Shown here one piece after another: positions 7,263-64,000 of a stretch of 64,000 nucleotides of DNA. Both the position numbers and the translations under genes were made by a program. The notes under the pieces are model-generated. The model was given only the letters and a program-made list of their open reading frames with translations, was not told where the DNA came from and searched no databases. Source of the stretch: Corynebacterium nuruki S6-4 (GTDB lineage: Bacteria; Actinomycetota; Actinomycetes; Mycobacteriales; Mycobacteriaceae); the NCBI RefSeq assembly GCF_007970465.1, contig NZ_CP042429.1, forward strand, positions 310,001-374,000, in the 5' to 3' direction. Position 1 is the stretch's first letter. Each line of letters starts with the position of its first letter.

Positions 7263-7272
7263 CGTGCCCGGC

Positions 7273-7947: not shown

Positions 7948-7956
7948 TCCGTAACC

Positions 7957-8262: not shown

Positions 8263-8354
8263 AGTCCGTGGCCTGACCGGGCTGGTCGAGGCCGTTCGAG
8301 GCCGTTCGAGGCGGTCGGTGCTGGTCAGGGCCGGTCGTGCCGGCCGGAAAAATA

Positions 8355-8381
8355 TTGTCCACAGGGGCCGGGTTGTCCACA
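8355..8381 (+). promoter_or_regulatory. Direct pair of DnaA-box-like sites
   Basis: TTGTCCACA occurs exactly at 8355-8363 and 8373-8381, again 18 bp apart in direct orientation. The 45 bp around them (through GGCTCCTGGGCTTT) closely match the pair at 1025, so the whole block is a repeat. It lies 65 bp before yraN. Confidence 0.55.
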
Positions 8382-8445
8382 GGCTCCTGGGCTTTCCCCG
8401 CCGGGGCGACGGGGCGGGTCCACCGGATCTGCCAGGGTCGGGGGC

Positions 8446-8838: not shown

Positions 8839-10460
8839 CGGGGACAGCCGAGGCAGCAGGGGTAGCAGGAAAGTCAGGGGCGACCGGTGCCGTCACCGTC
8901 AGTGACCGGTCCCCGGTCCGCGTCGGCCAGGCCAGGGGCATGTGCCTGGTCGGGGTCGACGGTGTGCCGGTCACCGTGGAATGCGACATCAGCCGTGGTC
9001 TGCCCGGGATGAGCATCGGCGGACTCGGCGACACGGCCGTCAACCAGGCCCGCGACCGGGTCCGGTCCGCGATGATCAACAGTGGTCTGGCCTGGCCGAA
9101 GAGCCGCGTGGTGATGAGCCTGTCCCCGGCGGCCCTGCCGAAGTCCGGGTCAGGATTCGACCTGCCGATGGTGCTCGCCGTCCTCAGCGCGCAGGGCATG
9201 GTGGCCGACGGTGCCCCCGGAGCCGACCCGACGGCCACCGTCGTCATCGGCGAACTGGGACTGACCGGGGAGGTCCGGCCGGTCCCCGGCGTGCTGCCGA
9301 TGCTGCTCGCCGCCCGCGGCGCCGGTGCTGTGCGGGCCGCCGTCCCGGCGGGGAACGCTGCCGAGGCGGCCCGGGTCGACGGCATGGACATCACCGGGCT
9401 CGACCACCTCGACCAGCTGCTGCCCTGGGTCCACGAGGAACTCGATGCACCGGTGGCGGACCTCGTCGGAGCGGAGGGAGACCAGGTCGCGGCCACCCCG
9501 TCGCGGGTTCCCGATCTCAGTGAGGTCTCCGGGCAGTCCGCGGCACGCCGGGCCCTCGAAGTCGCCGCCGCCGGCGGCCACCACCTGTGGCTCACCGGCC
9601 CACCCGGCTCCGGCAAATCGATGCTCGCCGAACGGCTGCCCGGCATTCTGCCGCCGCTGACGGACACCGAGCGGACCGAGACCGCGGCCGTGCACTCTGT
9701 CGCCGCGGAGCAGGGCAATCTGCCGGCGGTGTGGAGCGGTCGGCGACCTTTCGTCGCCCCCCATCCCTCACTGACCCTGCCCGCCCTCACCGGCGGGGGT
9801 GCCGGCCGGGTCCGGCCGGGGGCGGCGAGCCTGGCACACCACGGGGTGCTGTTCCTCGATGAGGCCCCCGAAATCCGTCGGGAGGTTCTCGAGGGGCTGC
9901 GCACCCCGATGGAGAACGGCCGTATCGCCCTGTCCCGGGCCCGCGGCACGGTGGTGCTGCCCGCCCGGTTCCAGCTGGTGCTGGCGTCCAACCCGTGCCC
10001 GTGCGGGGCGCCGGAACCCGCCGACTGCCGGTGCCGGGGCGGGGTCCGGGACCGCTACCTGCAGCGGATCTCCGGCCCGGTGCGTGACCGCCTCGATCTC
10101 ACCGCCCGCACCACCACGGACCGCTCGGCGGTGCTGGACACCGGCGGTGGCGTCGAGGACTCGGCGACGGTGCGCGACCGGGTCCTCTCCGCCAGAGACC
10201 GTGGCCGGCACCGGTGGCAGGCGGTCAACGCCCTCGTCGACGGTCCGGCACTGCGGCGGGACCATCCCGCGCAGGACGCCGCCATGCTGCTGCTCCAGGA
10301 GCACCTGCGCGCCGGCGGCCTGACGCACCGGGGCGTGGACCGGTCCCTGCGGGTGGCCTGGACCCTCGCCGACCTCGCCGGGGTGGGGCAGCCGGGGATC
10401 GGTGAGGTGATGGATGCGGTGGAACTGTTCACCGCCGAGATCGACGGCGGACGGTCATGA
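8835..10460 (+). CDS. comM: ComM/YifB family Mg-chelatase-like AAA+ ATPase
   Basis: ComM is a hexameric helicase that helps branch migration during natural transformation. The 541-residue protein has an N-terminal Lon-substrate-like domain (GMSIGGLGDTAVNQARDRVR), Walker A GPPGSGKSML near 256, Walker B VLFLDEAPE near 337, a Cys cluster (NPCPCGAPEPADCRCRGG, about 385-402) and the C-terminal Mg-chelatase lid. It overlaps both yraN and dprA by 4 bases, forming a tight operon. Confidence 0.95.
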   Translation: MTGTAEAAGVAGKSGATGAVTVSDRSPVRVGQARGMCLVGVDGVPVTVECDISRGLPGMSIGGLGDTAVNQARDRVRSAMINSGLAWPKSRVVMSLSPAALPKSGSGFDLPMVLAVLSAQGMVADGAPGADPTATVVIGELGLTGEVRPVPGVLPMLLAARGAGAVRAAVPAGNAAEAARVDGMDITGLDHLDQLLPWVHEELDAPVADLVGAEGDQVAATPSRVPDLSEVSGQSAARRALEVAAAGGHHLWLTGPPGSGKSMLAERLPGILPPLTDTERTETAAVHSVAAEQGNLPAVWSGRRPFVAPHPSLTLPALTGGGAGRVRPGAASLAHHGVLFLDEAPEIRREVLEGLRTPMENGRIALSRARGTVVLPARFQLVLASNPCPCGAPEPADCRCRGGVRDRYLQRISGPVRDRLDLTARTTTDRSAVLDTGGGVEDSATVRDRVLSARDRGRHRWQAVNALVDGPALRRDHPAQDAAMLLLQEHLRAGGLTHRGVDRSLRVAWTLADLAGVGQPGIGEVMDAVELFTAEIDGGRS

Positions 10461-11725
10461 CCGGGACAGGCCGGGGCGTCGGGGGCACCGGGCGCGATGA
10501 CGGACAGCAGACGGCGTGGGACACCCGCCGCACCGCCTGGGCCTACCTGCGCCGGGTGGTGGAGGCCTCCCGCGGCGACGTCGTCCGGCTGCTGTGGCCC
10601 GACGGCGATGTGACGGCACCGGCCGATGTCGAGCGGGTCGCCGGCATGATCCGGGCCGCCGATCCGACACTGCCGGCCCGCCTGGCCGCGGCGACCGGGC
10701 CACGCACCGGGGCGGACCCGGCGACCGACCGGGAATGGGCGGAGCGGCACGGTTGGCGGCTGATCACCCCCGACGACCCGGAGTGGCCCACCACCCGGCT
10801 GGCGGAGGCCTTCCGGGACTTCCCGGACCTCGCCGGCGGCGGCGATGTCGCCGACGACGGGGTGCGGGGCCGGGCCGCACGACCCTTCGCCCTGTGGGCC
10901 ACCGGACCCGCCGACCTCGGTCGGGCGGTCGAGCGCAGTGTCGCGATGGTCGGCACCCGCTCGGCGACCTCCTACGGCACCCGGATCACCCGCACCATGG
11001 CCGGTGACCTCGCCGCAGCCGGGCACACCGTCGTCTCCGGCGGGGCGGTGGGCATCGACACCGCCGCACACCGCGGGGCGCTCGCCGTGCAGGGCACCAC
11101 GGTCGCGGTGGCGGCGAGCGGACCGGGGGAGATCTACCCGCGGGCGAACGCCGACCTGTTCGGCAGGATCGCCGGGTCCGGGCTGGTGGTCACCGAGTAC
11201 CCGCCCCTGCTGCGTCCGGCACGGCACCGCTTCCTCACCCGCAACCGACTCGTCGCCGCCCTCACCCGCGGCACCGTCCTGCTCGCCGCCGGCTACCGGT
11301 CCGGGGCCGTCAACACCGCCAACTGGGCGGACGCGATGCTGCGGCCCGTCATGGTGCTGCCCGGGCCCGTCGACTCGCCGGACTACGTCGGCTGCCACAA
11401 ACGGCTGCGCGACCAGGCCGGGATCCTCGTCACCCGCGCCGACGACGTCCGGGAGATCCTCGACCCCGTCGGAGCGGTCGACACCGACGGTCAGCTGCGC
11501 ATGGAGTTCGCCGCCACCCCGGTCCAACAGCTCACCCAGGACCAGCTGGCGGTCTTCGACGCGTGCGCGCTCGCCGGCCGGCGCGCCGACGGCACCGGCA
11601 CACCCGACCGCATCGTCGCGGAGACCGGACTGGCACTGCGCGCTGTGGTCCGCATCATCGCCGAGCTGGAGAAGGCGGGTCTGGCGCGCCGGGAGGGGAG
11701 CCGCTGGATCAAGACCGACCGGTGA
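10457..11725 (+). CDS. dprA: DNA-processing protein DprA
   Basis: DprA loads RecA on incoming single-stranded DNA. The 422-residue protein shows the Rossmann-like DprA core: MVGTRSATSYGTRITR near 163-178, VVSGGAVGIDTAAHRGAL near 191-208, the conserved segment HRFLTRNRLVAALTRGTVLL near 256, and MVLPGPVDSP. The last 60 residues form a winged-helix (ALRAVVRIIAELEKAGLARR). The N-terminal 100 residues are variable. Translation is coupled to comM. Confidence 0.95.
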   Translation: MTGTGRGVGGTGRDDGQQTAWDTRRTAWAYLRRVVEASRGDVVRLLWPDGDVTAPADVERVAGMIRAADPTLPARLAAATGPRTGADPATDREWAERHGWRLITPDDPEWPTTRLAEAFRDFPDLAGGGDVADDGVRGRAARPFALWATGPADLGRAVERSVAMVGTRSATSYGTRITRTMAGDLAAAGHTVVSGGAVGIDTAAHRGALAVQGTTVAVAASGPGEIYPRANADLFGRIAGSGLVVTEYPPLLRPARHRFLTRNRLVAALTRGTVLLAAGYRSGAVNTANWADAMLRPVMVLPGPVDSPDYVGCHKRLRDQAGILVTRADDVREILDPVGAVDTDGQLRMEFAATPVQQLTQDQLAVFDACALAGRRADGTGTPDRIVAETGLALRAVVRIIAELEKAGLARREGSRWIKTDR

Positions 11726-37129: not shown

Positions 37130-37854
37130 CCGGCGCGACTCAGCTCCGAAAGAATCCGGTGGCGCAGAGCACGTCCACGGCCTCGGACAGCAGGATCCGC
37201 TCCTGTTCGATCCGCAGGTTCCCCAGGGATGCCAGAAGATCCAGCGCCGCATCCTCCGCGGTGGTGAGATACGGCAGGATCTTCCGGTCGGGATGGGTGT
37301 CCGTCGTCGCGAGAGGACGCCATCGCCGTACCGCCGCCTCATCCATGAGAACTGACTGGACCTGCGGCAGGTGGGAACGGACCGCCGAGAGAATTGCGAA
37401 GCCGTCCGTGTCCAGATCGCCCCAGTACCAGGTGGGCAGATTGACCAGCCACGGCAGTTGCGCCCATTTCCGGGCACGGTAGCCGGCACCCCAGATCAGC
37501 ATCCGTCCCGGGCAGACCGGTAGCGCCAGAAAGGTCTCGAGGTTCTCCACGATGAGCACTCCGGTTACCGGGACCGTCGTTTCCGCCCACAGCATGGCCG
37601 CCCCGGTCCATGTCAGTGTCATGTCTTCCGGAAACACGTCACGTCCCGGGACATCCGACGGAAGCCGCATCCTGATCTGGGGCTCCCGCTCGACCAGTCC
37701 AAGATCGGACAGTGACCGGACCAGGCTACCGTCCGGTGCACCGCGATGGGCGGACACCAGACGGGTGACGAGGGTGAGATGATGGGGCCTGACCCCCGTG
37801 TGGTGGACACCCTGACCCCGGCGATGCGCCGGGAAAGAAAGGTAGTGTTCCACC

Positions 37855-38157
37855 ATGCCCCTGAAGACCTACTCGGAGCAGTTCAAACGTGACGCCGTCG
37901 CCCTCTACGAGTCCACCGAAGGCGCGTCACTGAAATCCGTGGCCGCCGAACTCGGGATCAACCGCAACACCCTCAAAGCCTGGGTCGCCCGCTTCTCCGC
38001 CAACCCGCGGGCCGGCAGCACCGACGATTCCCCGGCAGCCGTGATCACCGATGCTGAACGGATCCGACAGCTCGAACGCGACAACGCCAGACTCCGGGAG
38101 GAACGCGACATCCTGCGGCGGGCCGCGAAGTATTTCGCGGAAGAGACGAACTGGTGA
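37855..38157 (+). CDS. IS3-family transposase OrfA
   Basis: A 100-residue helix-turn-helix protein (YSEQFKRDAVALYEST, SLKSVAAELGINRNTLKAWV) with a leucine-zipper-like C-terminus (IRQLERDNARLREERDILRR) for multimerisation. This is the DNA-binding half of the IS3 transposase. Its TGA overlaps the GTG of orfB by 4 bases. Confidence 0.93.
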   Translation: MPLKTYSEQFKRDAVALYESTEGASLKSVAAELGINRNTLKAWVARFSANPRAGSTDDSPAAVITDAERIRQLERDNARLREERDILRRAAKYFAEETNW

Positions 38158-39104
38158 GCCGCTTCAAGTTCGTTGACGACACCCGCACCGACTACCCGGT
38201 CAAGCGGCTCTGCGAGGTCCTGAACCTCAACAGGTCCTCCTACTACAAGTGGAAAGCCTCAACCCCCGCACGCAACCAACGCACCTGTGACGATGCGCTG
38301 CTGGCAGCCAGGATCACCGTCATCTTCAACGATCACGACGGGTGCTACGGAGCCAAGCGCATCGCCGCTGAACTCAACGATGTCGCCGACCCCGGTGACC
38401 TTGGGGACCTCGGTGACCTCGGCGATGACGTACCCGTCGACGCACAACAGCCGGTGAACCATAAGCGTGTCGCCCGGCTGATGAAGACCAACGGCCTGGC
38501 CGGGTACGTCCGGCGCCGACGGGTGACCACCACCGTCGCCGATACGTCCCGACGGGTCTTCGCCGACCTCGTCAACCGCAGGTTCACCGCCGAGGACCCC
38601 AACAAGGTCTACGTGGGTGACATTACCTACCTGCCGATATCCGACGGGTCGAACATGTACCTGGCCACGGTCATCGACTGCTTCTCCCGCCGGCTGGTCG
38701 GCTTCGCGATCGCCGACCACATGCGCACCAGTCTGGTCGTCGATGCACTGAACTCGGCGGCCGGTCAACGCGGGAGTCTCGCCGGGGCGATCTTCCACTC
38801 CGACCACGGCAGCGTGTACACCTCCGGGACGTTCCAGAAAGCCTGCCGGGAGCTCGGAGTCCGGCAGTCGATGGGGGCGGTCGGTACGAGCGCGGACAAT
38901 GCTCTGGCGGAGTCGTTCAACGCCGCACTGAAACGTGAGGTCCTCAAAGACGACAGGACCTTCGCCAACCAGTTGGTGTGCCGTCGGGACGTGTTCCGGT
39001 GGTGCGTGCGTTACAACACAACTCGTCGGCATTCCTGGTGCAGGTACCTCTCGCCACAGGTCTACGAGGCCCGGAGTTCGGGTAGACTCCGACTCGTATC
39101 CTGA
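38154..39104 (+). CDS. IS3-family transposase OrfB (DDE integrase)
   Basis: A 316-residue catalytic half with HTH_21 (YGAKRIAAEL) and an rve-type DDE core: Asp in VYVGDITYLPI, Asp in FHSDHGSVYTS and Glu in NALAESFNAALK. Between YGAKRIAAELNDV and VNHKRVARLMK it carries about 20 extra residues with a short GDLGDLGDLGD repeat (38395-38450) not usual in this family. GTG 38154 overlaps orfA, so it is made by reinitiation or as an OrfAB fusion by frameshifting. Confidence 0.92.
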   Translation: MSRFKFVDDTRTDYPVKRLCEVLNLNRSSYYKWKASTPARNQRTCDDALLAARITVIFNDHDGCYGAKRIAAELNDVADPGDLGDLGDLGDDVPVDAQQPVNHKRVARLMKTNGLAGYVRRRRVTTTVADTSRRVFADLVNRRFTAEDPNKVYVGDITYLPISDGSNMYLATVIDCFSRRLVGFAIADHMRTSLVVDALNSAAGQRGSLAGAIFHSDHGSVYTSGTFQKACRELGVRQSMGAVGTSADNALAESFNAALKREVLKDDRTFANQLVCRRDVFRWCVRYNTTRRHSWCRYLSPQVYEARSSGRLRLVS

Positions 39105-39709
39105 ATCACATCCCCGTGTCCACCATCCGGGGTTCGGGCCCATGCTCCAGCCACTTGCCGTGTACCCCCTCAACCGGCACCGCCCGGGGAGTGAGTCCGG
39201 AATCCGGGTACGCCAGCAGCCAGTCGACGACGGCATGCAGCCGGACCAGGTCTTCGTCGGTCAGGTCACTCCACCGTGTCATGACCGCGGCCGCCGCAGT
39301 GCGCACCCCGGGGGCCGGACGTTCGCCGAGCAGCCGTGACATCCGGTGGATCAGTCCGCGCCATCGGCTCTTCTGTCCGGTGAGAGTCACCAGTGCCTCC
39401 ACTCCGGTGACCTGCAGCCGGTCCGGTACGCGTTGACGGCCCAGTCCGGCGGCCGACCAGGACTTCTCCACCCAGACCACCGTCACAGTCGAATCTGCAC
39501 CTGTATGCCCGCGCTCCCACCGTTGCCAGGACCGTATCCAGTCAGCGGCCGAGGCGGGGTCGGCGCCGGCCTTTTTCCCCGTCGGCGGATGCAACGGCAG
39601 ATCGGCAGTGGCAGTGTCCGCAAGCTGCGGATCAGCCAGCCAGTCCTTCCACTGACGCTCCACCCACGCGGTGAGTGAGGTGACGGCATCGGTCGGGGTG
39701 AGGGGGCCG

Positions 39710-42700
39710 CTACTCTTCACCATCGTGATCCCTGCTCCGTCGCAGTGCCTCTTCGAAGCTGACTGGTGCCAGGGTCGTGGCTGCACGAATCACACCTGAG
39801 GGGTCCGGACGCTCGGTATAGGCGACGACGGCCACCCCGCCGACATAGTCATCCAGGGTCTGGATCAGCTTCAGCGGGGTGGCGAGCACCATGTGGAACC
39901 CGAAGCTGGTGAACACGTCCATGGCGGTGCGGGTGAACTCCGGGTCTGCCCGGTCGAAAGCTTCGTCGAGGATGACCGTGGCATACCGGGGGAACTCCTC
40001 GTCCACATCGGCGAGCTGGAACCGCAGCGCCGCAGCGAGACAGAAGAACACCAGCTTCTGAGCCTGCCCACCGGACAGGGAGGCGGAATCCACATAGGCG
40101 TTCACTGCTGTGCCATGTTCATCGACCTCCACCCCGATGAACCGGACATGCCGACGGGTGTCCAGCACAGTGCGACGCCAGCGACGGTCCGCCGTCTCCT
40201 CGGATGCCAGCCGGTCGAGCAGCTCCGACATCCGCCGGTAACGGGACTCAGCCTCTTCCGGACTGTCCGCGGTACCCAGCCGGTTCTCCACCGCGGCCTG
40301 CAGATCCCGCTGGAAATCGGTGACTTCGCTGCCGCGGTTGTCGCGGACGTCGATGCGCAGCCAACGTCCCGGCGCGAACCGGGAACGAGACAGTGACTCG
40401 TTGACACTGCTGATCCGTTCCTCGATGAGGTCCTTCGCCCGCCGCAGTGACCGGGACAGTTGGGTGAGGTTCGTGACCGAGGTGCCGTTCATCAGGGTCA
40501 GGAACCGGTCGGTGAACTCGGCGAGCCGGTTGCCGCGTAGCGCGGTGAGCCGGGCAACCGCTTCGCCGGCGAACTCAGGGTCGGCGGTAAGGTCGGACTT
40601 CTCCTCCGGCCACCGCTCCAGATAGGTCGCCAGGACCGACTGGATGCGCTGGTCGGCGCGGTGGATACTGTCCCGGGCGTCCGTCTCGGCGCGGTGCAGG
40701 TTCTCACTGACCAGAGTGGTCAGCTCCTGGACATTATCCACTGTTACCCGACGGGTGTGGCGGGCATATTCGGCTTCGACAGCGGCGACGGTGGCAGCCG
40801 CATCGGTCGTCTCCGGGCGGTCAATGGCACTGCTCATTTTCTCGAGTCCGGCAAGCTCGGCGACGGCACGGTCGCGTCGGTCCGTGATCACCCCGACCTT
40901 CTGGTCCGCCGCGCTACGGACCTTCACTGCGTCATGCACTCTGACGGTCGCGGCATCACGGGATTCCGTGAGCGTGGTGCGCTCCGGAGATCCTGACCAG
41001 GCGGTCACAGCTGCGGTCGCCTCGGCAAGCTGCCTTCCGGCACGGGAGGTGTCGACATCCAGCCAGGTGGTGGCGCGGATACGGGACGCCGCGGCTTTCG
41101 ACGCTTCGAGCGAGGCCAGCGCGACTTCACCGTCGCGCCGTTGCCGGTCGGCAGCTTCGACCTGCCCGGCGACAGTTGTCTTCCGTCGCGACAGGAGTTC
41201 CTGTTTGTCATGGTTGGTGGAGCCCAGTGTCCAGTGGCTCCGGTCATCGATACGGTGGCGGTCGTCTTTTTCGAAGCGGACTGATCCATCGGACTCCCGC
41301 CGACCGTGGACCAGACCACTGCGGGTCACTCCGCGGTCAGTGCCGAGTGTGGCGAAGTCCGCCGGAGACTCCACACACCGGTATTCGTACCGGGTACGCA
41401 GTTGAGCCAGTACCCAGTTGTGGAAAGGGCCGTCGACGATCTTCAACTTCAGGCTGAGAGCATCTGTGGTGCCTGCCCGTTGCGGTACCCGCACCTGATC
41501 GGGGATGGAACGGTACACCAGGCGCACTCCGGTGTGATGGTCGTTGATGTACGCGGAAACCTGACCGATCACCGACTCGGGGACGAGCAGGGTGGTGGCG
41601 AAACCGCCGAGCAGCCGTTGTGCGACCGGCTCCCATTCCCGGTGGTCGTCGACGACGTCGATGAGTTCCCCGGCAAAGGGCAGTTCGCGGGGGCGCAGTC
41701 CCAGTTCACGGCACAGTTCCTCTCGGACGATGATGTGACGGTGCCCGATGTTCGAGGTCCTCTTTGCGAGGCTCGTCAGTTCCTCATTGATCTCACGGAG
41801 TTCTGTCCGTGCCTTACCGTGGCGGCGGATGGCGTCATTACGGGCGCTCTCATGGCGCTCCCGCTCCGTCGTATATGTCTCGAGGACATTGAGCGCCTGC
41901 CCGGTGAGTACCGTGAACTCCTCGTCGCTGGTCGGCGCGGCGCCGCCCAACGTAGTGACGGCATCGGCCAGGGTCTCCGCCTTCTCCCGGACGCGGTCGA
42001 GCGCACTGCGTGCCAGTTCGACATCCTTCTCCAGAACGCGCAGTTGGTCGCCGCCGGCTCCTGCGAGGGCAGTTTCGATATTCTGCAGGTCGTCGATCGC
42101 ACGGCGTTCATCCTGCAGCGCCCGGGCAAGCACATCATTGGCCGAGACCAGTGTCGTCTCCTGTTCACGGATGAGGTCGGTGAGTGATTCGCGGCGCAAC
42201 CGGTCGCGGACCTGCGGCAGGACCGACAGCATGGACGTTGCTCGAGTGGCCTCGAGCGTTGCCGCATCACGGGTGGAGACCAGTTCCGGCAGAGGAGACA
42301 GCACGTCGATGCGGGACTTGACGTCCTGCACCCGCTCGTAGGCGGTCCGTAGTTCGGTGAACTGGTTCACGGCGTCCGCTGCCAGAGTGAACGTCTCCGG
42401 TTCCACGAGCATGTAGTCGCGGAAAAGCTGGTCGAGATTGTCGAGCTGCTTCGCCGACTGGGTACGGTGCAGCAGCAGGAGCGCTTCCGGGGAAGTGATG
42501 CCCAACTTCGGGCGGAACCGGTCAGCGAATATCCGGTGTGTCTGGGTGAACTGGGCGGGTGAGGGCCAGTGCGCCTTGATCCGGCGGACATTGATACCGG
42601 TGCTCATCATCGGGTGCAGGGTGCTCGGATCAAGATCCAGGGGCTCGTGATGCACCCCGTAGAGCTTCGAGACCGCGGTCTGTGAGGTATCCCCGGCGCG

Positions 42701-43096
42701 CAGGTAGTAGAACGCGGTGAGAGTGACGACCTCGGTGCCGGAGGTGTAGGTCAGCGCGACGGCGGACCACGTCGCGCCGGGACGCAGGTAGGTCGACGTC
42801 ATATCGCCGGTCGCGGCGTCCTCTCTGCTGCGCCACGCGCCGCGGATGTAGGACACAAGGGTGCGGCCGGTGGAACGGCGGGTGCCACCGGACTGGCCGG
42901 CTGCGTTGAAGTGCAACTTCTCCGGCGGCATGAGAACTGCCGCCACTGCGTCGATGATCGTCGACTTGCCGGAACCGGACGCGCCGGTGACGAGGAAACC
43001 TTCGCGGGGAACGTCGACGTCGAGGTAACCGTCGACGGTGCCCCAGTTGATCAGCTGGATGCGGGAGAGCCGGAACTGCCCGGGGTGGATGGTCAT
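39710..43096 (-). CDS. jetC: Wadjet SMC-like ATPase JetC
   Basis: JetC is the SMC-type motor that extrudes DNA loops in the Wadjet (MksB-like) complex. The 1128-residue chain has Walker A TGASGSGKSTII (residues 37-48), long coiled coils, a hinge near 479-530 (ELIDVVDDHREWEPVAQRLL), a second coil, the ABC signature LSGGQAQKL near 1005 and Walker B TVILDEAFDRADPEF near 1040. It overlaps jetB by 4 bases and jetD by 14. The frame is intact. Confidence 0.95.
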   Translation of the reverse strand: MTIHPGQFRLSRIQLINWGTVDGYLDVDVPREGFLVTGASGSGKSTIIDAVAAVLMPPEKLHFNAAGQSGGTRRSTGRTLVSYIRGAWRSREDAATGDMTSTYLRPGATWSAVALTYTSGTEVVTLTAFYYLRAGDTSQTAVSKLYGVHHEPLDLDPSTLHPMMSTGINVRRIKAHWPSPAQFTQTHRIFADRFRPKLGITSPEALLLLHRTQSAKQLDNLDQLFRDYMLVEPETFTLAADAVNQFTELRTAYERVQDVKSRIDVLSPLPELVSTRDAATLEATRATSMLSVLPQVRDRLRRESLTDLIREQETTLVSANDVLARALQDERRAIDDLQNIETALAGAGGDQLRVLEKDVELARSALDRVREKAETLADAVTTLGGAAPTSDEEFTVLTGQALNVLETYTTERERHESARNDAIRRHGKARTELREINEELTSLAKRTSNIGHRHIIVREELCRELGLRPRELPFAGELIDVVDDHREWEPVAQRLLGGFATTLLVPESVIGQVSAYINDHHTGVRLVYRSIPDQVRVPQRAGTTDALSLKLKIVDGPFHNWVLAQLRTRYEYRCVESPADFATLGTDRGVTRSGLVHGRRESDGSVRFEKDDRHRIDDRSHWTLGSTNHDKQELLSRRKTTVAGQVEAADRQRRDGEVALASLEASKAAASRIRATTWLDVDTSRAGRQLAEATAAVTAWSGSPERTTLTESRDAATVRVHDAVKVRSAADQKVGVITDRRDRAVAELAGLEKMSSAIDRPETTDAAATVAAVEAEYARHTRRVTVDNVQELTTLVSENLHRAETDARDSIHRADQRIQSVLATYLERWPEEKSDLTADPEFAGEAVARLTALRGNRLAEFTDRFLTLMNGTSVTNLTQLSRSLRRAKDLIEERISSVNESLSRSRFAPGRWLRIDVRDNRGSEVTDFQRDLQAAVENRLGTADSPEEAESRYRRMSELLDRLASEETADRRWRRTVLDTRRHVRFIGVEVDEHGTAVNAYVDSASLSGGQAQKLVFFCLAAALRFQLADVDEEFPRYATVILDEAFDRADPEFTRTAMDVFTSFGFHMVLATPLKLIQTLDDYVGGVAVVAYTERPDPSGVIRAATTLAPVSFEEALRRSRDHDGEE

Positions 43097-43746
43097 TGTG
43101 CTTCTCCTGCTTCTTCTGTGTCTTCCTCTCCGCCAGTTTCAGCGAACCGTCGGTATTCAGCGGTGACCGCAGAGACGGTCTGTGGGTCGAAGATGTGCTT
43201 GAGTGCAGGGGAGATCTCGTAACGGCCGTCGGTCTCCGTGGTGCTCAGCAGATTGAACTTGTTGTTGAGACGGGTCATGGAGGCATCGAAACGTCGGCGG
43301 AATGCTGCTTCATCCGTATCAGTCACACTGCGGTAGACGAGTATCTCGGCGAACAGGTCGTCCGCGTCGACGATCACCCGTTCACCGGGCAGGGCATGCG
43401 CTATCCGGGAACGCAGGTGCAGGAGGATAAGTGTGTCCACGTGGGTCAGCGGTTCGGTGCGCAGGACCTGCGGAATGTCGAGTTCCTCTGGAGCTTCTAT
43501 ACCGGGGCGCACCATCCGCGTGAAGGCGATCCCCGCGTTCTCGTCGAGGACCAGGTCGAGAAAGACCTCTGCCAACCGGGCCCGGAGTGCGGACTCGTCG
43601 GAGAGCACTGCGGCCCAGATCGCAGAATGTTTTGTCGCAGTGATCAGCGGTCCTTTAAGTAACTGAACCAGGGCGCGTCGGGATCTCAGTGACAGCGATC
43701 CGGTGTCGCCGGGCCACAGAGCGTCGGGGGTGTCAGGAGTGGTCAT
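43093..43746 (-). CDS. jetB: Wadjet subunit JetB (DUF4194, KITE-like)
   Basis: A 217-residue DUF4194 protein, the MksE/KITE-type subunit that binds the JetA kleisin. The family pattern includes RRALVQLLKGPLITATKHSA, VDTLILLHLRSRIAHALPGE, VYRSVTDTDEAAFRRRFDAS and LNNKFNLLSTTETDGRYEI, a tandem winged-helix fold. Its start overlaps the jetA stop by one base (TGATG) and its end overlaps jetC by 4. These overlaps imply stoichiometric, coupled synthesis. Confidence 0.92.
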   Translation of the reverse strand: MTTPDTPDALWPGDTGSLSLRSRRALVQLLKGPLITATKHSAIWAAVLSDESALRARLAEVFLDLVLDENAGIAFTRMVRPGIEAPEELDIPQVLRTEPLTHVDTLILLHLRSRIAHALPGERVIVDADDLFAEILVYRSVTDTDEAAFRRRFDASMTRLNNKFNLLSTTETDGRYEISPALKHIFDPQTVSAVTAEYRRFAETGGEEDTEEAGEAQ

Positions 43747-45257
43747 CAGCCTTCCTCGGTGGTGACAGGTGTCTCGGTGATCTCTGGTGTCTCAGGCGCG
43801 GCGAATATCCAGCGGGGGATGGTGGCGCGTCGCGGATTTCCACGCTCATCGTCCCAGGTGACCTGCTCGGTCCCCTCACCGGCCGTACCATGGCGGATCG
43901 CGAGATGCAGTAGGCCCACGACCGAGGCGAGACCCTGGGATGCAGGATGACGGTGCAACACCGTGGCGACCGTGGCTGTTGAAGAGTCGCCGAGCACGTC
44001 GCGGATGTCCGCCTCGAGTTCCGTCAGGTCGATTTCACTGGATCTGACGGCAGCGAGCAGCGCGTCCGCATCGACGGTGGGCGTTGCCACGGGCGTCGGT
44101 GCGTTCTGTACCGTCTCATCTCCCGGATTCCGGAGTCTCAGGGCGCTTACCGAGGTAATCGGCATGCCGATACGGACCAGGGGAGTCTGCATACGCTGGT
44201 AGGCGCGGACGTCCACACCGTCGCCGGACACGGCTTCGGCGGCGGCGGTGCGTGCCTCGTGCAGCAGCTCCACCATTCTCCGGTCCTCCGCGAACTCCTC
44301 GGAGGTGACGTAGTTGCGCAGGGATCTGGCCAGGCTGGTCATCGTACGGTTCACGTGTGCGCCGGCGTCCTCCATGGACCGGAACAGGTGGCGTAGCCGG
44401 GTTCGGGTTGCAGTCGGTAGTTCTTTTGCCTGTGGCCGGCTGAGTATGTCGGCTATCCATCGGTCGATCCAGGCTGACCGCTCCTGGTCGAGCAGGACCG
44501 AGTAGAAACCGTTGAAGCTGCGTCCGGCTTCGGATTCGCCGATGAGGTCCACTCCGTCGAAGATTTCGTCGAGGACGTCTCCGCGCGACCCCTCCGGATC
44601 GAGCAATTGACGGCGCAGTGACCGGTTGAGATCTTCCAGATCCCGGGAGACCCGGGAGAAGTCAGCTGGAACCGCGGACGCCTGATCGAGGATGTCGGTG
44701 ACCCGTTCAACCACCTCGGCACTGCCCAGAACCTCGTAGTCGCCGTGTTCCACCCGCTCGATCTGCCGGTCGATTCCGTCGCGTTGGGCCTGGAGAGAGG
44801 CCACGCGGGAGCGGGTGTCCGGGTCGACGTCACGGGCGAGGGTGCGCAACGATTCGGTGAGGGATTCCACCCGGGTCGCGGTCACCACGGAGCGCGGTTC
44901 CTCCCAGCGGCTGACCGTGTCGAGCACGGAGAGCGTCTCTTCTGTGGGTTCGAGCATCTCTCCGGTTGCGGCCGTGCCGGGGTGCCGGATAAGCCACCCG
45001 GCCTTGACCCAGTCGGTGCAGTACTGCTGGGCAGATCGGGAGAGTGGAAACTGGTCGGGATAGCGGCCTGTAAGAAGGCGCAGATCGGCGCCGAGCAGTT
45101 CGTACAGTTCGGCGGCGGGTCGTTGCCGGGTGCCCTGCGGGAAATATTCGTGGACCATCGCCAGAACAACCGGTGCGAGCGGGCTTCGGAGCAGCGACAT
45201 CGCAGGGGAGGACCGTTGCAGGCGGGAAATCGACAGCGCCCGGGCTTCGATGCTCAT
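43746..45257 (-). CDS. jetA: Wadjet kleisin-like subunit JetA (DUF3375)
   Basis: A 503-residue DUF3375 protein, the MksF/kleisin-like subunit linking JetB and JetC. Family blocks include SPLAPVVLAMVHEYF near the start, a long helical middle (VASLQAQRDGIDRQIERVEHGDYEVL), NRTMTSLARSLRNYVTSEEF and PRWIFAAPE at the end. ATG 45257 (MSIEARALSISRLQRS) is preferred over ATG 45266; the frame further upstream crosses the divergent promoter region. It is the first gene of jetABCD. Confidence 0.92.
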   Translation of the reverse strand: MSIEARALSISRLQRSSPAMSLLRSPLAPVVLAMVHEYFPQGTRQRPAAELYELLGADLRLLTGRYPDQFPLSRSAQQYCTDWVKAGWLIRHPGTAATGEMLEPTEETLSVLDTVSRWEEPRSVVTATRVESLTESLRTLARDVDPDTRSRVASLQAQRDGIDRQIERVEHGDYEVLGSAEVVERVTDILDQASAVPADFSRVSRDLEDLNRSLRRQLLDPEGSRGDVLDEIFDGVDLIGESEAGRSFNGFYSVLLDQERSAWIDRWIADILSRPQAKELPTATRTRLRHLFRSMEDAGAHVNRTMTSLARSLRNYVTSEEFAEDRRMVELLHEARTAAAEAVSGDGVDVRAYQRMQTPLVRIGMPITSVSALRLRNPGDETVQNAPTPVATPTVDADALLAAVRSSEIDLTELEADIRDVLGDSSTATVATVLHRHPASQGLASVVGLLHLAIRHGTAGEGTEQVTWDDERGNPRRATIPRWIFAAPETPEITETPVTTEEG

Positions 45258-46275: not shown

Positions 46276-46992
46276 GTGCACCGACGCCTCACCGTCCCCG
46301 CCGCCACCGCCGTACTCGCCGGCGCTGCGGCATTCCTTCTCACCGCGTGCGCCGGGGGCGCCGATGACAGTGCCGCCCCCACGTTCACACCGGCGGACAC
46401 CGTCTCTGCGGACGCCGGGACCACGGGCTCCGGCGCACCGGACCCGACCACCACAGCGGCTGCGCCGTCCGGATCCGCCCACGACACCGGGGCAGCGGCG
46501 TCCTCCCGCAGCAGCGGCCGGCACGGGTCCGGTTCCGACCGCCCGGCGTCGCTCACCGATGCCGGCTGGGCGGGGACGTCCACGAAATGCCGGCACGGTG
46601 ACCCGTGGGTCTACGCGGCCCAGGGTGAGCCGGGGCAGGTCGTCATCTGTGTCTCCGATGACTTCCTCTACGCCGTCGACACCGGTCGACCCGGCGGTTA
46701 CGACGCGGCACAGGAATTCCTGACCAGTGTCTGCCCGGTGGAGGGGAACAGTCCGGGCCGGTTCGTCTGGAACAACTCGGATGTCGGCTGGACCGAGTAC
46801 AACGGCACCTCGCACTCCGTCATGGACGTGATCGACGGCGCAGGGGAGATGGATCTGGGGGATGCCCGCAACCTCGTCCAGGATTCCTACGACGGCGCCT
46901 GGACCAACACCGCCGTGGACATCCCCGATCTCCGACGGTGCAACAGTGACCGCGACTGGTCCCGTACCGACCGGCTGCTGTCGCAGTCCTGA
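46276..46992 (+). CDS. Secreted lipoprotein of unknown function
   Basis: A 238-residue exported protein. The signal peptide has lipobox LLTAC (Cys about 25), followed by a 75-residue Ala/Thr/Ser/Gly-rich linker of extracellular type, then a compact C-terminal domain (about 95-235) containing four Cys (KCRHGD, VVICVSDD, TSVCPVEG, RRCNSD) that could form two disulfides. GTG 46276 is the start. No family recognised. It separates the HEPN pair from the helicase gene. Confidence 0.75.
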   Translation: MHRRLTVPAATAVLAGAAAFLLTACAGGADDSAAPTFTPADTVSADAGTTGSGAPDPTTTAAAPSGSAHDTGAAASSRSSGRHGSGSDRPASLTDAGWAGTSTKCRHGDPWVYAAQGEPGQVVICVSDDFLYAVDTGRPGGYDAAQEFLTSVCPVEGNSPGRFVWNNSDVGWTEYNGTSHSVMDVIDGAGEMDLGDARNLVQDSYDGAWTNTAVDIPDLRRCNSDRDWSRTDRLLSQS

Positions 46993-47047
46993 GTGCGTCC
47001 GACCGGACATCAGGTTGCTGTCCGGTGGGCATGGCACAATGCGCCGC

Positions 47048-50000
47048 ATGGCACGCCACACCGTCACCACCAGCCTTCTCGACCTCATCCGGACCACCAC
47101 CTCCGACCGGACATGCGACGAGGCACTCACCGTGTTTGACATGGGCGGGGTGGTCTCCGCGGGCTCCGAGACCATCCCCGACGGCACCGTCCACTTCTTC
47201 GACGTGCTGAGCAGCCCCGCGGCCGCCACCGCCGAGGAGGTCACCGTCGTACAGGCCCGTGGCCTGCTGCGCGCCACCGAGTGCAGTTGCCCCAGTACGG
47301 TCCCGTGTGTCCACGAGGCGGCCGCCCTGCTCGCCCTGGACGCGGCGGGTGCACTCCAGATCGGCGACGACGGGGCGGCGTCCGGAACCGTCGACACGCC
47401 CGTGGTGCCGCCGTGGCGGCAGGTCCTCGACGAGGTACTGCCGCCGGTGCAGGAGGAGGAGTCGCCGGTGGGGAAGCTCTGCCTCTTCGTCGACCGGCAG
47501 GGACTCTCGGTGCGCATCCGCCCCGGCGAGAAGGGGAGGAAGGGCGGATGGATCAAGGGGACGATGGGCTGGGACCGCGTGCCGTACGCCCGGGTCGGCC
47601 GGGAGGTCACCGCGCTGCTGGAGACGATGTACGAATTCTCCGTCCAGGGCTACGACCGGTACGGCCGCGGCTACGGCTTCGCCGGCGAATGGCTGCCGCT
47701 GGAACACCTCGACGACCCGCACCTGTGGGAGCACCTGCGGTTCCTCCGCGATGCCGGGGTGGAACTGCTCACCTGGGAAGGCCGCGTCCCGGTGGACCTG
47801 TCGGACGCCCCTGCCGCCCTGCAGGCCGGCATCACCGAGGGACCGGACGCCGCACTGCGGGTCGCCGGGGAACTCACCGTCGCCGGCGAGCCCGTCGTCG
47901 ACCGCCCCGGCACCGAGCACCTGTTCCTCGGGAACCCCGCCACCACACTGGCGGTGGTGCAGTCGGGCCCGCGGCACCAGCAGATCACCCTGCACCGCAT
48001 CACCGAACCCGTCACCCGGGACATGGCGGTGCTGGCCGACCACGTCCGGGATCTGCAGGTCACCGCGGCGGACCGCGCGGAGTTCGAGTCCGACTACCTG
48101 CCGAGGATCCGGAAACTGCTGGCCGTGACCTCCCCCGACGGCTCGTACACACCGCCGGAACCGCGCCGGGCGGTGCTCGTCATCGAGGTCTCACCCGTCC
48201 TCGACGAGGCGGAGATGCTGACGGGCGTGCGGCTCACGCAGCGCTGGGACCGCAGCGGCGGAGTGGACGACCGCGTCCATGAGGAGGCCGTGCTGCAGTC
48301 CGTCCGCGACCTGGACGGACCTCCCCTGGAACCGTCGATGTCACGGCACCAGGCGGTCCCGTTCCTCGCCGAGACCCTGCCGCGACTGCTGGAACTCGAC
48401 CATGTCCGCGTCGAGGTCACTGCCCCGATCCCGGAGTTCCGGCGCGCCGGGGAGGATCCGACGGTGACGGTACGCACCGCCGGCGACGTGGACAATGACT
48501 GGTTCGACCTGCGGGTGACCGTCAGCATCGCCGGGGAGGACGTGAATTTCGCCGACCTGTTCCGCGCGCTGACGCTGCGGGAGCCGCTGTTCATCCTGCC
48601 GTCCGGCACGTACTTTCCCCTGGACATCCCGGAGTTCGACCAGCTGCGGCGCATCATCGACGAGGCCCGCACCCTCAACGACGTCGGCCCGACCGGACTG
48701 CGCATCAGCCGCTACCAGGTCGACATGTGGGAGGAACTCGTCCGCTCCGGTCTCGTCGAAGCCCAGGACCACGCCTGGTGGCAGCGGATCCGGGACCTCG
48801 TGGCGGACGGGTCCGCCGTTGACGGTCCGGTGCGGGCGGTGCCGTCGGGACTGGCGGCGACCCTGCGCGACTACCAGGTCCGCGGGTACCGGTGGCTGGA
48901 GACGCTGCGGCGCAACAGGCTCGGCGGCATTCTCGCCGACGACATGGGTCTGGGTAAGACGCTGCAGGTCATCGCCATGATGCTTGCCGCGCACGAGGAC
49001 GCCGCAGCGCAGGGGGAGGATGGCGCGCCGGCCCGGGTCGCCCCGTTCCTCGTCGTCGCGCCGACCAGCGTGGTGGGCAACTGGGTCCGGGAGATCGAAC
49101 GGTTCGCCCCCGGGTTACGGGCCCGGGCGGTGACGGAGACCTCGAAGAAGCGCCGGTCGAGCCTGGCCGGGGCGGTCGCCGGGGCCGATGTGGTGGTCAC
49201 CAGCTACACCCTGTTCCGGCTGGACATCGAGGAGTACCACGCCCTGAACTGGTCGGCGGCGGTCTTCGACGAGGCGCAGATGATCAAGAACCACACCTCG
49301 CGGGCCTACGCCGCCGCCCGTGTGCTGGGCACCCCGGTGAAGATCGCGGTGACCGGTACCCCGCTGGAGAACAACCTGCTGGAACTGTGGGCGCTGGCCT
49401 CCCTGGTGTGCCCCGGACTGCTGGGCTCGAAGGCGCACTTCACCGAGTTCTTCCGCCATCCGGTGGAGAAACAGGGCGACACACAGCGGCTTGCCCTGCT
49501 GCAGCGTCGGCTCCGCCCCTTTCTGCTGCGCCGGACCAAGGACATGGTGGCCGCCGACCTGCCGGCGAAAACGGAGAAGGTCCTGGAACTGCAGCTGTCG
49601 CCGACGCACCGGAGGATCTACGACGTCCGGCTGCAACGCGAGCGCGCCAAGGTCCTCGGCCTGGTCCAGGACCTGGACGCCAACCGGTTCGAGGTCTTCC
49701 GCTCACTGACTCTGCTGCGCCAGCTCGCCCTGGATTCGGAACTGGCGGGGGAGGCGCCGACCCCCTCGGCGAAACTGTCGGCGCTGGCGGAACTGCTCAC
49801 CACGGTGACGCAGGAGGGGCACAAGGTCCTGGTGCTCAGCCAGTTCACCCGGTTCCTCCGCAAGGCGCGGGACGCCGCCACCGCCGCGGGGATCGACAGT
49901 CTCTACCTCGACGGGGCGACGAGGAACCGGCAGCAGGTCATCGACGCGTTCCGCGGGGAGGGGGACGGTGACGGTGCCGCTGGCAGCGGGGCGCCGGTGT

Positions 50001-50356
50001 TCTTCATCTCGCTGAAGGCCGGCGGCTTCGGACTGAACCTCACCGAGGCGGACTATGTGGTGCTGCTGGACCCGTGGTGGAACCCGGCGACCGAGGCGCA
50101 GGCGGTGGACCGGGCGCACCGGATCGGCCAGACCCGCCCGGTGGTCGTCTACCGGCTGGTCTCGGCGAACACCATCGAGTCGAAGGTGATGGCCCTCAAG
50201 GAGACGAAGGCGGCCCTGTTCGACCGGGTCCTCGACGGCGGTGGTGCGGTGGTCGACGGTGATGCGGCCGGAGGTGCCGCTGACCGGTCGGCGGTCGGCG
50301 GTGGTGACATCGGTCGGGCGCTGGACGCGGCCGACATCCGGGAGCTGCTGGCGTAG
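47048..50356 (+). CDS. SNF2-family helicase with SWIM zinc finger
   Basis: A 1102-residue DNA-dependent ATPase (HelZ/RapA-like). A SWIM finger CSCPSTVPCVH lies at about 78-88, then a bacterial SNF2 accessory region, then the two RecA-like lobes. Lobe 1 has Walker A ADDMGLGKTLQ near 630, DEAQ near 740 and TGTPLENNLLELW; lobe 2 has LSQFTRFLRKA near 930, KAGGFGLNLTEADYVVLLDP and DRAHRIGQTRPV near 1020. ATG 47048 or 47039 may start it. Actinobacterial SWIM-SNF2 proteins are usually chromosomal; proximity to Wadjet leaves a defence role open. Confidence 0.9.
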   Translation: MARHTVTTSLLDLIRTTTSDRTCDEALTVFDMGGVVSAGSETIPDGTVHFFDVLSSPAAATAEEVTVVQARGLLRATECSCPSTVPCVHEAAALLALDAAGALQIGDDGAASGTVDTPVVPPWRQVLDEVLPPVQEEESPVGKLCLFVDRQGLSVRIRPGEKGRKGGWIKGTMGWDRVPYARVGREVTALLETMYEFSVQGYDRYGRGYGFAGEWLPLEHLDDPHLWEHLRFLRDAGVELLTWEGRVPVDLSDAPAALQAGITEGPDAALRVAGELTVAGEPVVDRPGTEHLFLGNPATTLAVVQSGPRHQQITLHRITEPVTRDMAVLADHVRDLQVTAADRAEFESDYLPRIRKLLAVTSPDGSYTPPEPRRAVLVIEVSPVLDEAEMLTGVRLTQRWDRSGGVDDRVHEEAVLQSVRDLDGPPLEPSMSRHQAVPFLAETLPRLLELDHVRVEVTAPIPEFRRAGEDPTVTVRTAGDVDNDWFDLRVTVSIAGEDVNFADLFRALTLREPLFILPSGTYFPLDIPEFDQLRRIIDEARTLNDVGPTGLRISRYQVDMWEELVRSGLVEAQDHAWWQRIRDLVADGSAVDGPVRAVPSGLAATLRDYQVRGYRWLETLRRNRLGGILADDMGLGKTLQVIAMMLAAHEDAAAQGEDGAPARVAPFLVVAPTSVVGNWVREIERFAPGLRARAVTETSKKRRSSLAGAVAGADVVVTSYTLFRLDIEEYHALNWSAAVFDEAQMIKNHTSRAYAAARVLGTPVKIAVTGTPLENNLLELWALASLVCPGLLGSKAHFTEFFRHPVEKQGDTQRLALLQRRLRPFLLRRTKDMVAADLPAKTEKVLELQLSPTHRRIYDVRLQRERAKVLGLVQDLDANRFEVFRSLTLLRQLALDSELAGEAPTPSAKLSALAELLTTVTQEGHKVLVLSQFTRFLRKARDAATAAGIDSLYLDGATRNRQQVIDAFRGEGDGDGAAGSGAPVFFISLKAGGFGLNLTEADYVVLLDPWWNPATEAQAVDRAHRIGQTRPVVVYRLVSANTIESKVMALKETKAALFDRVLDGGGAVVDGDAAGGAADRSAVGGGDIGRALDAADIRELLA

Positions 50357-60221: not shown

Positions 60222-61204
60222 GGGCGTGTCTCTTTAAATAGTGGCCGTGTCCCGCCATACTGGGCTCATGGCCGCCACCGACCGCTACCAGCAACTCACC
60301 GATGCCCAGTGGGCCCGCATCGAACCCCTCCTACCCTCCAGTGACGGCAGGAGGGGTCGCCCGTTCCGGGACTCCCGCCAGATCCTCGAAGGGGTGATCT
60401 ACCGGTACCGCACCGGGATTCCCTGGCGTGACCTGCCCGAACACTTCGGACCCTGGCAGACGGTGTGGAAACGTCACCGCCGTTACACCGTCGACGGGAC
60501 CTGGGACCGGATCCTGCAGTCACTGCTGGCCGACGCTGACGCCGCCGGCCTGATCAGCTGGATCGTCTCGGTCGACGCGACGATCAACCGTGCTCACCAG
60601 CACGCGACGAACACGACCCGCCCCGAGCAGCACACGGGGGGCCCAGTCGAATTACAGGAATCAGGCCTGTTCTGACCTTGATGAGTGCGAACCTGCAGGC
60701 CATGGGGTTGGGCGTTCGCGGGGAGGGTTGAGCACGAAGATCCATCACGCCGTCGACGGGAAGGGCCGTCCACTGTCGGTGGTGGTCACCGGAGGTCAGC
60801 GTAACGACGGCAGTATGTTGCAGGTGGTCATTGACGATATCCGGGTGCCACAGCCGGCAGGACGGTCGGGCAGGCCCCGGACCACCCCGGATGCGGTGAT
60901 GGCGGACCGGGCGTACCCGAGTCGGGCGAATCGGGAGTACCTGCGGGACCGGGGGATCGTCGCGGTGATCCCGGAGAAGGTCGACCACGTCAACGCCCGC
61001 AAACGCAAAGGATCTGCCGGCGGTCGTCCACCCAAGATGGACTGGGAGGCGTACAAGGGCCGCAATGTGGTGGAGAGGTCGTTCAACCTGCTCAAACAGT
61101 GGCGGGGACTGGCGACCCGGTACGACAAGCTGGCGGTGATCTACCGCGGGGCTGCCGTCCTGGCTGCGATCGTCGCCTGGCTCAAAGCATTAGGAGACAC
61201 GCCC
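60222..61204 (+). mobile_element. IS5-family (IS427-like) insertion sequence
   Basis: A 983-bp element with ends GGGCGTGTCTC at both termini (inverted) and a TA duplication at 60220-60221 and 61205-61206, typical of the IS427 group. It has two overlapping transposase frames on the plus strand, opposite to the interrupted gene. Clean ends and duplication suggest a recent insertion. Confidence 0.9.
60268..60675 (+). CDS. IS5-family transposase, first frame
   Basis: An N-terminal half of about 135 residues: TDAQWARIEPLLPSSDGRRG, the DUF4096-like YRTGIPWRDLPEHFGPWQTV and the first catalytic Asp in IVSVDATINRAHQH. ATG 60268 is preferred; GTG 60241 is in frame. The second frame lies at +1 relative to this one, and a GGGGGG run at 60636-60641 inside the overlap is a likely frameshift site. 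Confidence 0.88.
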   Translation: MAATDRYQQLTDAQWARIEPLLPSSDGRRGRPFRDSRQILEGVIYRYRTGIPWRDLPEHFGPWQTVWKRHRRYTVDGTWDRILQSLLADADAAGLISWIVSVDATINRAHQHATNTTRPEQHTGGPVELQESGLF

Positions 61205-61207
61205 TAG
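60590..61207 (+). CDS. IS5-family transposase, second frame
   Basis: The C-terminal half of the DDE transposase: GRSRGGLSTKIHHAVDGKGR, VMADRAYPSRANREYL (second Asp), and YKGRNVVERSFNLLKQWRGL with the catalytic Glu. It is probably expressed as a fusion with the first frame by frameshifting and not from its own start at 60590. Confidence 0.88.
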   Translation: MLTSTRRTRPAPSSTRGAQSNYRNQACSDLDECEPAGHGVGRSRGGLSTKIHHAVDGKGRPLSVVVTGGQRNDGSMLQVVIDDIRVPQPAGRSGRPRTTPDAVMADRAYPSRANREYLRDRGIVAVIPEKVDHVNARKRKGSAGGRPPKMDWEAYKGRNVVERSFNLLKQWRGLATRYDKLAVIYRGAAVLAAIVAWLKALGDTP

Positions 61208-63104: not shown

Positions 63105-64000
63105 TTATGCGTCGGGCGTCGTGGTCTTGCCTGCACGGTAGGCCGCTCGGACCTGGTCAAGTGTCTGACCGGTACCCTCGACCGCCCACCAGATCCATCC
63201 GTTCTCAGACTCTGATCCGGCGGCCACCCGGGCGGCCATGGACGGGGAGGGGTACGTAGTCCCGTCCAGGGCGATGTCGCCATCAGCGGTGACTGTTGCC
63301 GTTGTACCGTGCCATCGGCTGCTCTGCCGGGCGCAGTGGAGGACGGTTCCGACGGGGAGGGCGCCGGATCTGACGAGGTCCTTCAGCGTAACTGTCGTGG
63401 AGGGAGTGGTCGGTCCGGATACATGGTCGGTGACGGTGCAGCCTTCCGGAACCGGCCAGATCGTGAGGATCTCCTCGACAAGTTCGCTGGTCCGTGCCTC
63501 GATGGTCTCCTCGTCCCACACTGGTGGTTCTAATGTGGTGGCATCCCTGGTCAGAAGGACATCATCGTGACTGATCAGGTCCGCACGCTTGGTGGTCCAG
63601 GCGCTGTTGCTGACCTTGCTGTTGAGCTTCTGGGTGAGCAGAGTCAGGTTACCGATCTGGTCGAGGACCGAATCCCGTGTGGCCTCCTGCTCCTCGGTGA
63701 GGTCTGCGGGCCAGTGCTTCCGCCACTTCTGGGGCATGAGGTGCTCCACTGTGCCCTTACCGCGGGGGATTGGTCCCATGGACAGTTGTTTACCGTCAGG
63801 GTAGCCACGCCGGTTGTCTTCGACTGCCTCAAGGACCATACGTAGTCGGTCGCGTCGGTATTTCTGGAAGGCCCGGGCGCCGACCAGGGACGCTCGGACA
63901 TCGTGGTCACTGGGCCAGTACCCGATGGTCGTGGCGTTGGCGGTGAGGAAGCGCGCAGTTTCCGAGGGGAGTGCGTCCTGCGGGGACTTGCTCAGCGTTT
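63105..64000 (-). CDS. GmrSD-like DUF262/DUF1524 protein with RAMA-like C-terminus, partial
   Basis: The gene enters from beyond base 64000 and stops at 63105 (298 codons seen). The DUF1524 HNH-like nuclease region is clear: WPSDHDVRASLVGARAFQKY, RLRMVLEAVEDNRRG, the H-x-x-P motif GTVEHLMPQKW and IGNLTLLTQKLNSKVSNSAW. After a linker, the last 85 residues (LVRSGALPVGTVLHC, YPSPSMAARVA, ENGWIWWAVEG) resemble the RAMA/DUF4357 domain of restriction systems. GmrSD-type enzymes are type IV restriction nucleases against modified phage DNA. The N-terminal DUF262 half is outside the window. 136 bp separate it from the GHKL gene downstream on the same strand. Confidence 0.82.
   Translation of the reverse strand, partial: TLSKSPQDALPSETARFLTANATTIGYWPSDHDVRASLVGARAFQKYRRDRLRMVLEAVEDNRRGYPDGKQLSMGPIPRGKGTVEHLMPQKWRKHWPADLTEEQEATRDSVLDQIGNLTLLTQKLNSKVSNSAWTTKRADLISHDDVLLTRDATTLEPPVWDEETIEARTSELVEEILTIWPVPEGCTVTDHVSGPTTPSTTVTLKDLVRSGALPVGTVLHCARQSSRWHGTTATVTADGDIALDGTTYPSPSMAARVAAGSESENGWIWWAVEGTGQTLDQVRAAYRAGKTTTPDA

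What the first reader, a model, noticed from the sequence alone, without database searches (positions are those of the whole stretch)
37140..45257. Wadjet operon with the nuclease gene jetD cleanly split by an IS3 element
jetA, jetB and jetC are intact and overlapping, but jetD carries a 1357-bp IS with an ATG duplication. Deleting the IS and one ATG restores a 407-codon frame with Toprim residues. The loop-extruding ATPase would be made without its nuclease, so the locus is off but could be restored by precise excision.
Basis: partly seen in the sequence, partly recalled or inferred. Interest (0 to 1): 0.85.

Follow-up and report, generated by a model that had tools for sequence, protein, structure and literature searches.

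The report
Plasmid-defence nuclease gene split by transposon
A Corynebacterium carries an anti-plasmid defence operon whose DNA-cutting gene has recently been broken in two by a jumping element; an almost identical unbroken copy exists in public data, and related bacteria often keep the rest of this machine without the cutter.

Summary
A type I Wadjet operon (jetA-B-C-D, minus strand) has overlapping, intact jetA, jetB and jetC. jetD is cut after codon 194 by a complete 1357-bp IS3-type element (37785-39141) flanked by an ATG duplication. A natural intact JetD of exactly 407 aa is in the protein collection and equals the window's halves at 406 of 407 positions, so the insertion is recent. No second JetD was found in this single-contig genome. 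Plasmid restriction by this operon is therefore very probably lost, as in published mksG deletions of C. glutamicum. The 'restored by precise excision' part is not supported: the IS3-family model IS911 moves by copy-out-paste-in, and nothing here shows excision.

A wider result emerged. The genome has a second JetABC locus without a nuclease gene. Of 87 Corynebacterium genomes with JetA, 16 have such a locus and no JetD domain detected anywhere. On a 39-row JetC tree JetD presence changes at least four times, while nuclease-free JetC stays under purifying selection. The window may show the first step of such a transition; ordinary decay fits equally well.

The parts
43746..45257 (-). jetA (kleisin-type subunit, DUF3375), likely start ATG at 45257
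   Evidence: PADLOC JetA1 E 9.9e-182, Pfam DUF3375 E 2e-143; start from the profile match
43093..43746 (-). jetB (MukE-like, DUF4194)
   Evidence: PADLOC JetB1 E 7.7e-82, Pfam DUF4194
39710..43096 (-). jetC (SMC-type ATPase, 1128 aa)
   Evidence: PADLOC JetC1 E 0; Walker A, signature and Walker B motifs
39142..39723 (-). jetD N piece, codons 1-194 (DUF3322)
   Evidence: Pfam DUF3322 E 1.2e-33; 193 of 194 positions equal P0001
37785..39141 (+). IS3-type insertion sequence, 1357 bp, antisense to jetD
   Evidence: second identical copy fixes the ends; inverted repeats
37855..38157 (+). IS orfA (HTH_Tnp_1)
   Evidence: Pfam E 6.6e-13
38154..39104 (+). IS orfB (rve integrase core), -1 frame relative to orfA
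   Evidence: Pfam rve E 2.1e-26; frame
37782..37784 (.). left copy of the ATG target duplication
39142..39144 (.). right copy of the ATG target duplication
37140..37781 (-). jetD C piece, codons 195-407 and stop (JetD_C, Toprim); carries E273, Y295, D316, E386, E388
   Evidence: Pfam JetD_C E 2.1e-39; 213 of 213 positions equal P0001; residues

Best explanation
This is a type I Wadjet (MksFEBG) anti-plasmid operon of a Corynebacterium whose nuclease gene jetD was recently inactivated by transposition of an IS3-type element that has one other, identical copy in the genome. JetA, JetB and JetC can still be made and should still bind and extrude DNA, but the complex has no cutter, so small circular plasmids are no longer destroyed. 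Shown: intact jetABC frames, split jetD, exact IS ends, target duplication, a natural intact allele, no other JetD found in the genome. Inferred: expression of jetABC, assembly of a nuclease-free complex, loss of plasmid restriction, and that the change is mostly one-way because the element copies itself rather than leaving.
For: Family matches and gene order; IS ends, duplications and identical second copy; natural 407-aa allele equal at 406 of 407 positions; the five residues that correspond to MksG E236, Y258, D279, E349, E351 are all in the piece cut off from the operon's start; one JetD_C hit in the genome; mksG deletion in C. glutamicum raises copy number of pBHK18 as mksB and mksF deletions do (PMC10123090, passages).
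Against: In the same paper pJC1 was not affected, so the phenotype depends on the plasmid. The C piece has an open frame of 238 aa with a start inside the IS, so a Toprim-only fragment is not excluded. No expression data. JetD_C and JetD1 models could miss a very divergent nuclease.
Confidence: 0.85

Rival explanations
1. Reversible switch: the IS leaves precisely often enough that the population alternates between Wadjet-on and Wadjet-off cells.
For: A clean 3-bp duplication and a natural uninserted allele exist. Precise excision is on record for another family, IS5 (PMC8944449, passage).
Against: IS911 of the IS3 family moves by copy-out-paste-in; the repeat is 3 bp; no excision product was seen; P0001 may simply be the ancestral allele.
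Confidence: 0.05
2. Split but working nuclease: the two pieces, or the C piece alone from its start inside the IS, give a functional or altered JetD.
For: All five residues that correspond to the MksG functional residues lie in the C piece, which has an open frame with an ATG inside the IS.
Against: The cut falls at the position of MksG residue 170, four past K166 of the N-terminal domain. The IS reads antisense to jetD, and no sigma-70-type promoter was found there (one promoter type only).
Confidence: 0.04
3. First step of a transition in which a Wadjet operon becomes a nuclease-free, MksBEF-like condensin that is kept for another task. Compatible with the best explanation rather than opposed to it.
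For: Nuclease-free JetABC loci in 16 of 87 JetA genomes without any JetD_C hit; at least four changes of JetD presence on the JetC tree; omega 0.04-0.14 in seven nuclease-free JetC pairs.
Against: The insertion is recent, so there has been no time for selection on the remaining genes to show; the genome already has a nuclease-free JetABC; decay of the whole operon is as likely.
Confidence: 0.3
4. Assembly artefact: the IS was misplaced into jetD between two identical copies.
For: Two 100% identical copies in one assembly.
Against: Each copy has its own 3-bp duplication (ATG and GGT), which a misjoin would not create, and the jetD flanks continue each other exactly as in P0001.
Confidence: 0.02

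Closest known systems
C. glutamicum MksBEFG (type I Wadjet)
   Same: Gene order F-E-B-G, same families, same functional residues in the nuclease
   Different: Here the nuclease gene is split by an IS
EptABCD of Mycobacterium smegmatis mc2-155
   Same: A natural strain-level loss of a Wadjet system; that strain takes up plasmids better (PMC10586767 and PMC10123090, passages)
   Different: There the passages name a spontaneous mutation in EptC, the MksB/JetC homologue; here the nuclease alone is hit, by an IS
MksBEF of Pseudomonas aeruginosa
   Same: JetABC-like complex without JetD; a review proposes origin by loss of JetD (PMC10586767, passage)
   Different: Established chromosome role there; no role is known here, and the loss is fresh at the window locus
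IS3 family elements (IS911 and others)
   Same: Two overlapping frames with HTH_Tnp_1 and rve domains, 3-bp duplication, terminal inverted repeats
   Different: Best full-length relative among 242 genus genomes is only 70% identical at DNA level; partial matches reach 80%

Membership tests
Wadjet type I (JetABCD) | jetA-B-C-D order in one operon | tested here: met
   overlapping frames in this order
Wadjet type I (JetABCD) | JetA, JetB, JetC of type I | tested here: met
   PADLOC JetA1, JetB1, JetC1
Wadjet type I (JetABCD) | SMC ATPase motifs in JetC | tested here: met
   Walker A, signature, Walker B strings
Wadjet type I (JetABCD) | JetD with DUF3322 and Toprim in one open frame | tested here: not met
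   domains are on two pieces split by the IS; met by the natural allele P0001
Wadjet type I (JetABCD) | restriction of small circular plasmids | not testable with these tools
   needs transformation assays
IS3 family | orfA/orfB overlapping in the -1 frame with rve core | tested here: met
IS3 family | terminal inverted repeats and short target duplication | tested here: met
   about 26 bp imperfect; ATG and GGT
IS3 family | copy-out-paste-in transposition | not testable with these tools
   taken from IS911 (passage)
MksBEF (nuclease-free) | JetABC-like genes without JetD | tested here: inconclusive
   window: both jetD pieces remain, split; second locus of the genome: no JetD detected
MksBEF (nuclease-free) | role in chromosome organisation | not testable with these tools
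   needs Hi-C or deletion

The most novel reading that the evidence does not exclude
Wadjet anti-plasmid machines repeatedly turn into nuclease-free, MksBEF-like DNA-loop motors by losing only jetD. In this one bacterial order the presence of JetD changed at least four times while JetABC stayed under purifying selection, and the window catches such a loss at its very first step, at strain level, with intact and split alleles both present in nature.
Probability: 0.3. Interest if true: 0.7.

Novelty: new member of a known kind. Interest (0 to 1): 0.42.

Why it matters
An IS inside a defence gene is ordinary in itself. What raises the case is that only the effector is hit, that a near-identical intact allele exists, and that the genus holds many intact JetABC sets without JetD. 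This makes the proposal that MksBEF condensins descend from Wadjet by loss of the nuclease (PMC10586767, passage) directly testable: natural strains with and without JetD but with nearly the same JetABC could be compared for plasmid restriction and chromosome folding.

Tried and rejected
A second jetD elsewhere was sought with Pfam JetD_C (one hit, the split gene) and PADLOC JetD1 (the two pieces plus a partial hit at E 0.013 at C1:1478208); none credible. Assembly artefact: rejected on two distinct target duplications. A replacement nuclease downstream of the nuclease-free JetABC loci was sought by listing neighbouring reading frames of 19 loci; by eye no gene is shared across all of them, though some neighbours recur within subgroups. 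A change in the JetB N-terminus (the JetD-contacting IFDR motif, PMC10586767 passage) between loci with and without JetD was looked for and was inconclusive, because I could not place the motif in these sequences. An outward promoter for the C piece: none found by a scan that covers one promoter type. Frequency of the split allele: not measurable, because P0001 stands for a 90% cluster of 19 sequences and its sources are not shown. A report of an IS in jetD: none seen in the listings (25 of 31 papers listed; 6 of 6), nor in passages of four papers of those lists; the other papers of the lists were not read for this.

Rows merged or dropped: one search prints some JetA genes in pieces (G055, G120, G129, G162 contig 11); I counted each once, which gives 96 places. 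Of these, 24 have no JetD_C in the expected place. Of the 20 genomes with only such places, four were left out of the count of 16: G048 (JetA at a contig edge), G113 (remnant), G105 (a JetD 28 kb away) and G203 (locus split over contigs). Two of the 16 genomes are under 90% complete (G189 53%, G190 88%), so absence is weaker there. The JetA tree used 55 genus rows and 5 others, the JetC tree 39 rows, so not every locus. In the JetA tree the 12-row nuclease-free clade sits on a very long branch and its deeper place is unsure. Three JetD-bearing rows of the JetC tree (L151-L153) lack my exact Walker strings; not followed up. The omega pairs share members and differ in divergence, so the comparison is rough.

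Full report
WHAT IS THERE. The window is bases 310001-374000 of a single 3,173,955-bp contig. Nearest hits for the jetD C piece are Corynebacterium (C. kalidii 74%, a Corynebacterium MAG 61%), and the genus control of the searches is the same genus. On the minus strand lie jetA (43746-45257), jetB (43093-43746), jetC (39710-43096) and jetD (from ATG 39723), all overlapping. PADLOC places JetA, JetB and JetC in type I Wadjet. JetC keeps Walker A, signature and Walker B motifs.

THE BREAK. jetD is interrupted after codon 194 by an insertion at 37785-39141, 1357 bp. Its ends are fixed by a second copy at C1:2692198-2693554, which is identical over 1357 of 1357 bases and then diverges at once. Terminal inverted repeats are imperfect, about 26 bp. 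The duplication is ATG at jetD and GGT at the other site (read from the flanks). orfA (HTH_Tnp_1) and orfB (rve) overlap in the -1 frame, which fits IS3. The element lies antisense to jetD.

THE UNINSERTED ALLELE EXISTS. Counting bases, the two pieces give 582 and 642 nt, each a multiple of three, or 407 codons plus stop. Searching with the C reading frame returned 114 proteins; the best, P0001, is 407 aa long and stands for 19 sequences on 21 contigs. It equals the N piece at 193 of 194 positions and the C piece at 213 of 213. So the predicted uninterrupted frame is real in nature, and the insertion is young. Six further relatives (P0002-P0007) read through the junction region without a break. 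The source of P0001 is not shown, so whether it is an ancestral allele or another strain's cannot be told.

WHY THE LOCUS SHOULD BE OFF. The best solved relative is C. glutamicum MksG (8b7f, E 3.3e-67). The functional residues named for MksG (E236, Y258, D279, E349, E351; PMC10123090, passages) correspond to E273, Y295, D316, E386 and E388 here, a constant offset of 37, all in the C piece (the first three checked on the alignment). The cut falls after the position of MksG residue 170, four residues past K166, which that paper places in the N-terminal domain. In C. glutamicum, mksG deletion raises the copy number of pBHK18, though not of pJC1, as mksB and mksF deletions do, and E236A or D279A drastically impair cleavage. 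No other JetD was found in the genome: JetD_C gives one hit, JetD1 gives the two pieces plus a partial hit at E 0.013.

NOT A PROVEN SWITCH. IS911 of the IS3 family moves by copy-out-paste-in (PMC8944449, passage), so transposition does not itself empty the donor site. That a 3-bp repeat gives little help for slippage is my inference. Nothing here shows excision.

HOW RARE. In 242 Corynebacterium genomes JetD_C is found in 74 and JetA in 87. Of 96 JetA places, with genes printed in pieces counted once, 72 have JetD_C downstream on the same strand. The JetA-to-JetD_C gap has a median of 4585 bp, and only the window (6103 bp) exceeds 5400. An insertion of this size inside the operon is therefore 1 of 72 by this measure. 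The IS at 100% was seen only in this genome among 242; the next full-length match is 70%, shorter partial matches reach 80%.

A SECOND LOCUS WITHOUT NUCLEASE. The genome holds another JetA at C1:1113764-1115245 with JetB and JetC beside it, all best matched by type I models and with JetC motifs intact. Downstream is a GFO/IDH/MocA oxidoreductase, and no JetD is detected in the 18-kb stretch (best E 0.35). Similar loci were fetched from other genomes. Sixteen of the 87 JetA-bearing genomes have such a locus and no JetD_C hit anywhere at E 0.001. Outside the genus I chose nine loci, which found matches in 55 of 298 genomes: seven have JetD beside JetC (L147, L148, L151-L155) and two do not (L149, L150; the L150 contig ends 3.1 kb after JetC). 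The two JetD-bearing loci L147 and L148 are among the four that are closest to the window genome's second JetC (54-56% identity). On a 39-row JetC tree the well-supported branches force at least four changes of JetD presence; on a 60-row JetA tree the nuclease-free label needs five changes, of which well-supported branches force four. Seven nuclease-free JetC pairs have omega 0.04-0.14, an eighth is saturated, and three JetD-bearing pairs have 0.17-0.24. Changes could be losses or gains; losses are the simpler reading because JetD sits in the same operon place where present (inference).

JUDGEMENT. As an IS hit in a defence gene this is a new member of a known kind. The interest lies in the setting: JetABC without JetD is common and maintained in this genus, in line with the suggestion that MksBEF arose from Wadjet by loss of JetD (PMC10586767, passage). 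Whether this allele is such a step or simple decay cannot be told from sequence.

Noticed in passing
L022 (G000 C1:1104000-1122000), JetABC at about 5501-11327 minus: A second type I JetABC locus of the same genome with no JetD detected; it belongs to a clade of nuclease-free loci in Corynebacterium.
   Followed up: yes
L023 (G000 C1:2685000-2701000), IS at 7199-8555: The second, identical IS copy lies near prophage-like genes (Mu-type portal, Clp-type protease), so a phage may have carried the element.
   Followed up: partly
L131 and L133 (G109, G189): Nuclease-free JetABC loci with a gap of about 1.65 kb and 0.67 kb between JetA and JetB.
   Followed up: no
L145-L146 (G105 C1:124300-162000): JetABC followed by AbiEi/AbiEii-like genes, with a lone JetD about 28 kb further on.
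   Followed up: partly
L121-L124, L126 (G018, G128, G220, G113, G205): JetD remnants without an intact JetA nearby: decayed Wadjet loci in five genomes.
   Followed up: partly
window 63105-63839 minus: Frame with GmrSD C-terminal and RAMA domains, likely part of another restriction system.
   Followed up: no
window 60241-61207 plus: IS4/5-type transposase frames (DUF4096 at 60241-60675).
   Followed up: no
window 46862-50356 plus: Large SNF2-type helicase beside the operon; PADLOC's best model is DpdE, which may only reflect the shared helicase fold.
   Followed up: no
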